From: Pararhizobium sp. IMCC3301
Lineage (GTDB): Bacteria; Pseudomonadota; Alphaproteobacteria; Rhizobiales; GCA-2746425
Direction: 5' to 3'
Length of the DNA: 64,000 nucleotides
NCBI RefSeq assembly: GCF_030758315.1
Contig: NZ_CP132336.1
Span: 2,075,001-2,139,000 of the forward strand
Part shown: piece by piece, positions 42,061-44,479 of the stretch
Layout of the letters: each line of letters opens with the position of its first letter
Position numbering within the stretch: the first letter of the stretch is position 1
Made by a program: the position numbers and the translations under genes
Notes under the pieces: model-generated
Databases searched by the model: none
Seen by the model: the letters and a program-made list of their open reading frames with translations, nothing else
Told to the model about the DNA's origin: nothing

Positions 42061-42566
42061 TTGACTGATTTTTCCGTTCCATTGGCTGAACCACAACAGG
42101 ATTCCGCCGAAAAAAAGTCCGGGTCATCCGGTCCGGCCATGATTGGGCTTACCGTTGTCAGCGCCATTTTGCTGGCAGCAATGGGTCTTTGGGTGCTTCT
42201 GGTGAATGATCCGCTGGGCGGCCGGCCACAGGCAAGTGTGTTCATCGAAACAGATACGATTCTGATCGATGCGGGGCTTGTCGGTGTCGCAAATGTCCGT
42301 CCCAGCATGACGCCAGATCCCGATGATGTCTCCACTGTGACACTATCACCCCCGCGCGCAACAGTTCTGGCCGAAGTAACAGCACAACGGCAGGCCGGTG
42401 TCTCAGATGCCCCTGCATCTCAGCAGGAAGACGTCCCGGTAGCAGCCAATCCGTCGATCACCAATGAATTCGTGTCCTCCAGTTCTGACCTGCAGCGCCT
42501 GTCGGTCTTTCCCGTCGATAATCTGGTCAGCCGTTCCGGCGCGGGCCTCATTCCTAAACGCTTGTC
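42061..42566 (+). pseudogene. Divergent polysaccharide deacetylase, 5' fragment (split by IS110 element)
   Basis: The first 168 codons of a YibQ-type protein. A TTG start (the next in-frame ATG is 26 codons on) is followed by a cytoplasmic tail, one transmembrane helix (about residues 27-48, MIGLTVVSAILLAAMGLWV) and a Pro/Ser/Thr-rich periplasmic linker. The frame ends in the conserved pre-domain stretch VDNLVSRSGAGLIPKRL, then runs into the insertion element and stops at 42681 after 38 foreign codons. Joined to the 3' fragment it would give a 421-residue protein of normal layout. Position between ctpA and rppH is the usual one for this family in Rhizobiales. Confidence 0.88.
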
Positions 42567-42573
42567 TTATGAT

Positions 42574-42771
42574 TTTCCCGGCCATTCTGCGAAGAATGAG
42601 CCACTGCACGCCCCGTCATTTGTGGCGTGCAGTGGCGGCGGCTGGATCGTCAAACGCTTGGTCAGAAAAGGACCGTATTAGAGTGTGATCAGCCGTCGTC
42701 TTCGCCTGAGGCCTGAACGGATACAGAGCGGCGCAAAGCCCTCTACGACAAGCATAGGACACGCGAAGACA
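42574..42771 (+). ncRNA. Candidate bridge RNA in the IS110 left end
   Basis: Non-coding left end with the layout known for IS621 bridge RNA. (1) A perfect 13-bp stem at 42600-42612/42624-42636 with an 11-base loop. (2) A target loop: AAACGCTTG (42652-42660) identical to the left genomic flank 42556-42564, then stem GGTC/GACC (42660-42663/42671-42674). (3) A donor loop: ACGGATAC (42717-42724) identical to the element's right end 43710-43717, stem AGAGcGGC/GCCCTCT (42725-42744), then CATAGGA (42753-42759), able to pair with core plus left end TCTTATG with one G-T wobble. A right-target guide was not found. The RNA ends are guesses. Confidence 0.65.
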
Positions 42772-43704
42772 ATGAAAGATACCATCGGAATAGACATCTC
42801 GAAAGCCACTCTCGACGCCCATCGCCTGAGCACCGGCGAGGCGGCGCATTTTACCAATTCCCCGGCCGGTCTGCGTGCGCTACGACTCTGGATCGGCGCG
42901 CAAATGCCTCACCTGGTTGTCTATGAGGCGACCGGCGCCTATCACGCCGCCCTTGAGCATTGCTTTGCCGGGGTCTTGCCAATGGTGAAGGTGAACCCGC
43001 TACAGGCAAGACGCTTTGCCCAGGCGCGTGGCACACGGGCCAAGACCGACGCGGTAGATGCGCGCATTCTCGCCGTGATGGGGTCGGCGCTTGATCTTGT
43101 GCCAGATCGCCCGGCGGACAAAAACCAACACGCACTCAAGCAGTTGCAGATTGCCCGCATGGCTCTGGTCAAGGAACGCACCCGCCTCTTGAACCGGATG
43201 AAGACGCAGACCCTGGCCATCTTGAAACGCCAATCCAAGGCGCGCCTCGATCAGATCAAACGCCAGCTCGCCGAGGTGGAAGAGGCATCGCTGGCGCTTC
43301 TGCGCAGATCGCCCAAGCGCGTGAGGGCATTGGACATTCTTTCCTCCATTCCAGGCCTCGGGCAGGTTACAGCCGTCGCGATTCTCGTCGAATGCCCCGA
43401 GATCGGCACGCTGGGCAGAAAACAAGCCGCCAGCCTTGCAGGTCTCGCCCCGATGACACGTCAATCCGGCCAATGGCGCGGCAAAGCGTTCATCCAGGGC
43501 GGGCGAAAATTCCTGCGCGACGCGCTCTACATGCCCGCCCTCGTCGCCGCTCGCTACAACCCGGACCTCCGGCAAAAGTACCAGGCCATGATCCAGGCCG
43601 GAAAACCCGCGAAAGTCGCGCTGACAGCCCTGATGAGAAAGCTGATCGAACTGGCCAACACCCTCATCAGACAGGATCGAAACTGGACACCAAAAACAGC
43701 TTGA
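42772..43704 (+). CDS. IS110 family transposase
   Basis: A 310-residue recombinase. The N-terminal RuvC-like DEDD domain shows Asp8 (IGIDISKATLD), Glu52 (VYEATGAYH) and Asp93/Asp96 (KTDAVDARIL). A coiled linker follows (about 130-195), then the transposase-20 domain with SSIPGLGQVTAVAILVECP and the conserved Ser232 (MTRQSGQWRGK), which is the second catalytic site of this family. The ATG at 42772 was chosen because residues upstream of it to 42685 fall in the bridge-RNA region and are not family-like. The gene looks intact, so the element may be active. Confidence 0.95.
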   Translation: MKDTIGIDISKATLDAHRLSTGEAAHFTNSPAGLRALRLWIGAQMPHLVVYEATGAYHAALEHCFAGVLPMVKVNPLQARRFAQARGTRAKTDAVDARILAVMGSALDLVPDRPADKNQHALKQLQIARMALVKERTRLLNRMKTQTLAILKRQSKARLDQIKRQLAEVEEASLALLRRSPKRVRALDILSSIPGLGQVTAVAILVECPEIGTLGRKQAASLAGLAPMTRQSGQWRGKAFIQGGRKFLRDALYMPALVAARYNPDLRQKYQAMIQAGKPAKVALTALMRKLIELANTLIRQDRNWTPKTA

Positions 43705-43717
43705 TCAAGACGGATAC

Positions 43718-44479
43718 TCCAGTGACGGACAGACAGCCTTTTCCGCTTATGCTCGCCCGGCAAAATTCATTCCTGATGGACCGAAGATCGCTCTGATCAT
43801 CGGCGGAGTCGGATTATCCGAGCGCGCCACTGAGGAAGCTATCATTGCCCTGCCACCGACGACAGCACTGGCGTTTTCCAGCTACTCCGGCAAGCGTGAA
43901 AAATGGAAAAAACAGGCGCGCGAAAACGGCTTTGAATTGTTGATTGAGGCCCCCATGGAGCCGTTCAATTTTCCCGACAATGATCCTGGCCCGCACACGC
44001 TTCTGGTTGATGCAAGCGTGATCGAGAACCAGTCGAAACTGGAGTGGATTCTGTCCCGGTGGACGAATTATATCGGGGTCATTCCATCGATGGGCGCCCG
44101 TTTTACCGCAGATAAACCGGCATTGACGGCTCTGATGACCGAGCTGAACAGGCGCGGTCTGGCCTTTGTCGACCCGGCTACTTCCGTGCGCAGTGTGGCA
44201 AAAGACTCAGCGGCGGAGGTTTCGACCGATAAATTCGGCCATATGCCTTTTCTGAGAGTGGATGTAGTGCTGGACAAGGAACCAACACGGGCATCGATTG
44301 AACAACATCTGATCCAGCTGGAGGAACTCTCCAGCCGGAATGGTCTGGCTGTGGGATATGCCGAACTGCGTTCAGCGACCGTGGAAACTCTGGCCGAATG
44401 GGCGCGCCTGACCCAACAGCGCGGAATTACCCTGATTCCACTCAGCACGGCGATCAATCTGTCCATACCCGGGATCTGA
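43718..44479 (+). pseudogene. Divergent polysaccharide deacetylase, 3' fragment
   Basis: A 253-codon remainder in frame with the 5' fragment across the element. It holds the whole NodB-like barrel of the family: KIALIIGGVGLSERATEEAI, LAFSSYSGKREKWKKQAREN, EAPMEPFNFPDNDPGPHTL, MGARFTADKPAL and a C-terminal LIPLSTAINL. No ribosome site or good start lies at its head; internal starts at 43937 (TTG) or 43967 (ATG) would lose the first strands. It is therefore probably not functional, although the domain itself has no frameshift, suggesting a recent insertion. Confidence 0.85.

What the first reader, a model, noticed from the sequence alone, without database searches (positions are those of the whole stretch)
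42574..42771. Bridge RNA of an IS110 element with three of four guides readable against its own insertion site
The 9-mer AAACGCTTG in the non-coding left end (42652-42660) equals the genomic left flank (42556-42564) and stops exactly before the TC core. The 8-mer ACGGATAC (42717-42724) equals the element's right end (43710-43717) and also stops exactly before TC. CATAGGA (42753-42759) can pair with TC plus the left end (TCTTATG) with one wobble. Their order after a 13-bp hairpin matches the IS621 bridge RNA plan (5' stem-loop, target loop, donor loop). The core is TC rather than the CT of IS621. The right-target guide (expected near CACTGGA) was not seen. This would be a bridge-RNA recombinase with an unlisted core and target.
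Basis: partly seen in the sequence, partly recalled or inferred. Interest (0 to 1): 0.85.

Follow-up and report, generated by a model that had tools for sequence, protein, structure and literature searches.

The report
Ordinary IS110 element with bridge RNA
A small mobile DNA element carries its own guide RNA that tells its recombinase where to insert; the guide RNA looks real, but the element uses the usual CT junction of this family rather than the new TC junction first proposed, and its usual landing site looks to be the ends of a repeated sequence scattered through related genomes.

Summary
The bridge RNA is well supported; the unlisted TC core is not. The window holds an intact IS110-group element (cores 42561-42562 and 43717-43718, recombinase 42772-43704). 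Its left end encodes a bridge RNA with the IS621 plan: 5' stem-loop, target loop, donor loop. Three results fix the core as CT. CT lies at both ends in 34 of 36 elements read at both ends, TC in 28 of 36. The first target base after CT varies, and the right-target guide pairs with it in 33 of 33. In 4 of 4 congeneric orthologues of the interrupted gene the length fits a CT junction; TC leaves an extra Leu. Corrected guides: LTG AAACG+CU, RTG UAUUAGAG (the 'missing' guide), LDG ACGGAUAC, RDG GACAAG; CATAGGA lies partly in the donor-loop stem. Guides match their flanks far better than under re-pairing (0 of 20,000 shuffles). In the same genus, four related copies sit at ends of a dispersed ~260-bp repeat; the window copy sits at a near-cognate site in a deacetylase gene. 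A new member of a known kind.

The parts
42561..42562 (+). left core dinucleotide CT (recombination junction)
42552..42560 (+). left target flank TCCTAAACG inside the deacetylase gene
42563..42771 (+). left end (LE), 209 nt, non-coding, encodes the bridge RNA
42568..42573 (+). TATGAT, -10-like half of a promoter completed only when right end and left end join in a circle (TTGATC-17-TATGAT)
   Evidence: consensus match only
42600..42636 (+). 5' stem-loop of the bridge RNA (13-bp stem 42600-42612/42624-42636)
   Evidence: (compensatory changes)
42640..42694 (+). target-binding loop, closed by 42640-42648/42687-42694, with inner stem-loop 42660-42663/42671-42674
42652..42658 (+). left target guide AAACG plus core-pairing CU
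42676..42683 (+). right target guide UAUUAGAG; pairs CT+CCAGTG with 1 mismatch and 2 G.U pairs here
42684..42685 (+). proposed handshake guide UG next to the RTG (by analogy with IS621 positions 81-82)
   Evidence: position only
42698..42770 (+). donor-binding loop, outer stem 42698-42705/42763-42770, inner stem 42711-42714/42756-42760
   Evidence: outer stem from the single-sequence fold; inner stem; coordinates
42717..42724 (+). left donor guide ACGGAUAC (right-end ACGGATA plus first core base)
42747..42752 (+). right donor guide GACAAG, complementary to CTTGTC = core plus first four bases of LE
42772..43704 (+). IS110 DEDD/serine recombinase, 310 aa from ATG
43705..43716 (+). right end (RE), 12 nt after the stop codon, ending ACGGATA
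43717..43718 (+). right core dinucleotide CT
43719..43726 (+). right target flank CCAGTGAC inside the deacetylase gene

Best explanation
An intact IS110-group insertion sequence. On excision (inferred) it forms a circle whose right-end/left-end junction (ACGGATA-CT-TGTC) completes a promoter that transcribes the left end into a bridge RNA. The donor loop (LDG ACGGAUAC, RDG GACAAG) reads the circle junction. The target loop (LTG AAACG-CU, RTG UAUUAGAG) reads a target of the type AAACG-CT-CTA. The DEDD/serine recombinase exchanges strands at the CT core. Shown by sequence: boundaries, CT core, empty-site length, RNA architecture with compensatory changes, guide-target covariation in relatives, catalytic motifs. 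Inferred: circle, transcription, recombination activity. The usual target is probably the terminal repeat of a dispersed ~260-bp MITE-like repeat of this genus; this copy landed at a near-cognate site (AAACG-CT-CCAGTG) and split a divergent polysaccharide deacetylase gene.
For: Recombinase: PF01548 and PF02371, NCBIfam 'IS110 family RNA-guided transposase' 199.2 bits against a cut-off of 140, ISCro4 and IS621 the only PDB matches at E <= 0.01, motifs aligned. RNA: fold z -4.8; 30 aligned left ends, 38 consensus pairs, 23 with at least one kept double change. Guides: left 185 of 266 positions vs 124.4 +/- 5.9 under re-pairing; right 150 of 198 vs 73.1 +/- 6.3; 0 of 20,000 shuffles each, also 0 each in relatives under 60% identity. 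Core: CT at both ends in 34 of 36, TC in 28 of 36; RTG pairs with the first RT base in 33 of 33, 8 of them not C; 4 of 4 congeneric orthologues fit the CT empty site. Repeat.
Against: For the window copy alone the target match is moderate: LTG 5 of 7 non-core bases, RTG 3 Watson-Crick (5 with wobble) of 6. Its LTG fits the flanks of L026 (7) and L007 (6) better than its own (5). Among the window element and its six closest relatives, LTG-LT pairing is not better than shuffled (2,091 of 20,000). The shuffles do not correct for relatedness. The junction promoter is weak evidence. No expression or activity data. No Rfam family matches.
Confidence: 0.95

Rival explanations
1. One reading: bridge RNA with a TC core, RDG CATAGGA, and no readable RTG.
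For: TC is found at both ends in this copy and in 28 of 36 elements read at both ends; AAACGCTTG matches 9 nt in flank and RNA.
Against: The left TC belongs to the near-constant left end TGTC and the right C to the variable target; 8 of 36 lack the TC repeat, and in all 8 the RTG pairs with the changed base. The TC empty site carries an extra Leu absent from 4 of 4 orthologues. More distant elements such as L047 match the flank up to GC and then diverge.
Confidence: 0.02
2. The matches are chance or a by-product of repeated sequence; the structured left end is only a regulatory leader of the transposase.
For: Single words of 6-9 nt are weak evidence on their own; in the closest group left pairing is not better than shuffled.
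Against: Covariation with 0 of 20,000 shuffles on both target sides, in divergent relatives too; three guide words together in 0 of 5,000 shuffled left ends.
Confidence: 0.02
3. The window copy reached its site by homologous recombination or another route rather than bridge-RNA targeting, so the guide-flank agreement at this one site is partly accidental.
For: RTG pairs imperfectly (3 Watson-Crick and 2 wobble of 6) and the site is coding, not the repeat end.
Against: CT-exact boundaries and AAACG+CT agreement at the exact junction.
Confidence: 0.04

Closest known systems
IS621 (IS110 group; PMC11208160, PMC11208158)
   Same: DEDD + serine recombinase, CT core, bridge RNA in the left end with 5' stem-loop, target loop and donor loop, an 8-nt LDG (A123-C130), an RDG whose last four positions pair core + TG, promoter across the circle junction, target in a dispersed repeat
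   Different: Only about 100 bits of protein similarity; relatives of this element pair up to 6 RT bases beyond the core, against a 4-nt RTG including the core in IS621; RDG here is a contiguous GACAAG, where IS621 pairs discontiguously; different target
ISCro4 (PDB 9t56)
   Same: nearest solved recombinase by sequence, about 105 bits
   Different: its RNA and core were not compared here
ISRm19, ISPpu9, ISPpu10, ISPa11 in REP repeats (PMC1525189, passages)
   Same: IS110 elements specific for dispersed palindromic repeats
   Different: other hosts and repeats; here a ~260-bp MITE-like repeat; their sequences were not aligned here
IS1111 group (PMC11208160 passages; seekRNA paper PMC11187229, listing and abstract start only)
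   Same: a guide RNA selects the target in the same wider family
   Different: RNA lies in a long right end there; here the right end is 12 nt and the RNA is in the left end

Membership tests
IS110 group (IS621-like) | DEDD_Tnp_IS110 and Transposase_20 domains with catalytic D, E, D, D and Ser | tested here: met
   GID, YEATG, KTDAVDA and QSG align with IS621 at those motifs
IS110 group (IS621-like) | long left end, short right end, bridge RNA in the left end | tested here: met
   209 nt versus 12 nt; RNA fold
IS110 group (IS621-like) | 5' stem-loop, target loop and donor loop | tested here: met
IS110 group (IS621-like) | CT core at both ends, scarless junction | tested here: met
IS110 group (IS621-like) | guides covary with target | tested here: met
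   moderate for this copy alone, absent in the closest group of seven (left side)
IS110 group (IS621-like) | guides pair with the donor junction | tested here: met
   LDG ACGGAUAC and RDG GACAAG fit RE and LE; nearly invariant, so covariation was not tested
IS110 group (IS621-like) | promoter re-formed across the circle junction | tested here: inconclusive
   TTGATC-17-TATGAT, 9 of 12, in the window element; 9 or more in 12 of 38 junctions (repeats of one RNA and two duplicates included) against 5% of null joins; none found in 6 of 38, as in 16% of null
IS110 group (IS621-like) | RNA expression and RNA-guided recombination | not testable with these tools
   no transcript or activity data
IS1111 group | guide RNA in a long right end | tested here: not met
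   right end 12 nt

The most novel reading that the evidence does not exclude
The target guide of this IS110 lineage follows species-specific variants of a MITE terminal repeat. In the window's genome repeat ends read GAAACG or GAAGCG and never GAAAGG (8, 8 and 0 of 18 ends read), and its two readable LTGs hold AAACG; in the congener G002 ends read GAAAGG (18 of 20) and its guide reads AAAAG, inserted at AAAGG. The bridge RNA would be co-evolving with a non-autonomous repeat used as a low-cost landing site.
Probability: 0.3. Interest if true: 0.45.

Novelty: new member of a known kind. Interest (0 to 1): 0.22.

Why it matters
It is another natural bridge-RNA recombinase with all four guides assigned, from a lineage only about 100 bits from IS621, with a contiguous RDG. 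The case also warns that a core dinucleotide read from one copy can be several bases off where target and element end share letters; relatives and the empty site settle it. The repeat-end preference is a testable example of how such elements may choose low-cost sites.

Tried and rejected
Rfam search gave nothing. Viral contigs gave 3 relatives. A sigma-70 scan of 42400-43800 found no promoter; a promoter-like site appears only when the ends are joined. TC core and CATAGGA as RDG were considered and rejected. No structure was predicted, because IS621 and ISCro4 structures exist. A search for IS110, bridge RNA and MITE returned mostly papers on mites the animals (20 of 91 listed); IS110 targeting of REPs is in print. 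Papers: PMC11208160, section 6 and passages; PMC11208158, passages; PMC1525189, passages; PMC11187229, listing and abstract start only.

Rows and conditions. L045 (same contig as L022) and L110 (near-duplicate of L098) were left out and of the shuffles, but are in the 55 right ends and the 38 junctions; without them one search gives 53. L006 and L009 (same RNA as L008) were left out of the shuffles but are and the right-end counts. L050 and L109 (left guide misparsed) are in the left test and left out of that. Ends and guides were found with short patterns, so conservation of those letters is conditioned on them: left end TGT[CT]T[TC]A, right end GGATA/G, right guide required to end in AG (or AN). 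The four-way best offset was allowed in observed and shuffled left tests alike. 14 of 68 plasmid records were fetched.

Full report
What is there. The window carries an intact IS110 element. Pfam finds DEDD_Tnp_IS110 and Transposase_20, and NCBIfam finds its 'IS110 family RNA-guided transposase' above cut-off. The PDB matches are ISCro4 and IS621, and the D, E, D, D and Ser motifs align with those named for IS621. The recombinase is 42772-43704. The element is 42563-43716 with CT on either side (42561-42562, 43717-43718).

They are not chance: AAACGCTTG came up in 3 and ACGGATAC in 4 of 5,000 dinucleotide shuffles of the left end, and AAACGCT, ACGGATAC and GACAAG all together in none.

The core is CT, not TC. 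First, in 36 elements with both ends read, the window's included, CT lies at both ends in 34 and TC in 28. The two exceptions to CT are L111 (GT left, CT right) and L054 (TT left, CT right). Second, the base after the right CT varies: among 55 right ends C 44, T 5, A 4, G 2, or C 43, T 4, A 4, G 2 of 53 without two duplicates; one right end (L100) reads TT instead of CT. The right-target guide pairs with that base in 33 of 33 elements where both are known, including 8 in which it is not C. So that base is target and not core. Third, the element splits a divergent polysaccharide deacetylase gene (the downstream part is PF04748). With a CT junction the empty site reads LIPKR-SSDG, the length of the orthologues in 4 of 4 other genomes of the genus. 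With a TC junction it reads LIPKR-L-SSDG, one residue too long. In G002 the repeat interrupted by copies L006 and L008 has uninterrupted copies ending GAAAGG-CT-CTA, as a CT junction predicts.

All four guides. LTG: AAACG plus CU, 42652-42658. RTG: UAUUAGAG, 42676-42683; against the actual CT-CCAGTG it pairs both core bases, then C-G, a C/A mismatch, A-U, a G.U pair, T-A and a second G.U pair. LDG: ACGGAUAC, 42717-42724; IS621 has an 8-nt LDG too (A123-C130). RDG: GACAAG, 42747-42752, complementary to CT+TGTC.

Covariation. I parsed left flank, left guide, right guide and right flank in the relatives (dropped rows and pattern conditions are listed under Tried and rejected). Left: 185 of 266 positions match against 124.4 +/- 5.9 when flanks are re-dealt among elements (38 elements, best of four offsets in both cases). 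Right: 150 of 198 Watson-Crick against 73.1 +/- 6.3 (33 elements). None of 20,000 shuffles reached either value, nor when only relatives under 60% protein identity were used (20 and 19 elements). These shuffles do not correct for relatedness. Against this: among the window element and its six closest relatives with a readable left end the left match is not better than shuffled (2,091 of 20,000), and the window copy itself matches 5 of 7 left bases and 3 (5 with wobble) of 6 right bases.

RNA structure. The stretch 42567-42771 folds at -86.3 kcal/mol, z -4.8. Thirty aligned left ends give a consensus with 5' stem-loop, target loop with its inner hairpin, and donor loop; 23 of 38 pairs show at least one kept double change. 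The consensus also pairs the extreme left end with the 3' end of the region, which I do not interpret. The outer donor stem 42698-42705/42763-42770 is from the single-sequence fold, not from the consensus.

Expression. The integrated element shows no sigma-70-like site, but joining right end, core and left end gives TTGATC-17-TATGAT (9 of 12). Scores of 9 or more occurred in 12 of 38 junctions and in about 5% of null joins; 6 of 38 junctions had no site by the rule used, about as in the null. Part of the TTGA is the stop codon, so its conservation is not independent evidence. Durrant et al. report such a reconstituted promoter for IS621 (PMC11208160, passages).

Where it lands. The genus has a ~260-bp repeat with inverted ends. 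A query from G002 (the copy interrupted in L008) hit 76 places in G002, 18 in G000 (the window's genome), 8 in G004, 3 in G003 and none in G001; partial and reverse-end hits are included, and in G002 and G004 only 40 of the first-look candidates were scored. L006 and L008 lie at the end of an otherwise full repeat. The truncated own-genome copy L007 lies at the end of a shortened copy: its left flank matches G000 repeats over about 110 bases at 76-78%, up to or within a few bases of the junction, and a GAAACGCTCTAG end lies about 140 bp away. L009 lies beside a partial copy (51 bases at 80%, up to the junction). The flank of the decayed own-genome remnant L010 gave no match to the repeat. GAAACGCTCTAR occurs 11 times in G000 (1 in the reversed-pattern control), 2 in G002, 4 in G003, 4 in G004 and 0 in G001; 4 of the 11 lie at a repeat hit, and the one beside L007 makes five. 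GAAAGGCTCTAR occurs 0 times in G000 (control 2), 19 in G002 (control 4), 6 in G004, 2 in G003 and 1 in G001; 16 of the 19 lie at repeat hits. Read directly, 18 ends of 9 G000 repeats are GAAACG 8, GAAGCG 8, GAAACA 1, GCAACG 1; 20 ends of 10 G002 repeats are GAAAGG 18, others 2. The window LTG (AAACG) and the L007 LTG (GAAACG) fit about half of those G000 ends. The G002 guide reads AAAAG and has one mismatch to its own sites. Both facts weaken a strict co-evolution reading. The window copy is best seen as an insertion at a near-cognate site, AAACG-CT-CCAGTG.

Placement. This is a new member of the IS110 group with an IS621-type bridge RNA and the ordinary CT core. Targeting of repeats by IS110 elements is in print (PMC1525189, passages; PMC11208160, passages).

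Noticed in passing
G000:C1:2456773-2457012 (L003/L007): A second, truncated copy of a related element in the same genome: left end 84% alike with about the first 43 codons; its LTG equals the 7 bases left of its core exactly.
   Followed up: yes
G000:C1:1164502-1165233 (L002/L014) and G000:C1:3484772-3484838 (L004/L010): Two further remnants in the same genome: a right part with about 240 recombinase residues (70%), and 67 bp of a decayed left end beside GAAACACT.
   Followed up: partly
loci L063-L092 (G000, G002, G003, G004): A dispersed ~260-bp MITE-like repeat with inverted ends of the type CTAGAGC.TTTC...GAAA.GCTCTAG and species-specific end variants; its own mobilising transposase was not sought.
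   Followed up: partly
L049 (G345:C218), 2632 and 2731: Two IS110 left ends of different subtypes head to head about 100 bp apart, with a palindromic sequence between them.
   Followed up: no
L023: The donor loop of this relative carries a 36-nt insertion between CCTGAAC and GGATAC, interrupting the left donor guide.
   Followed up: no
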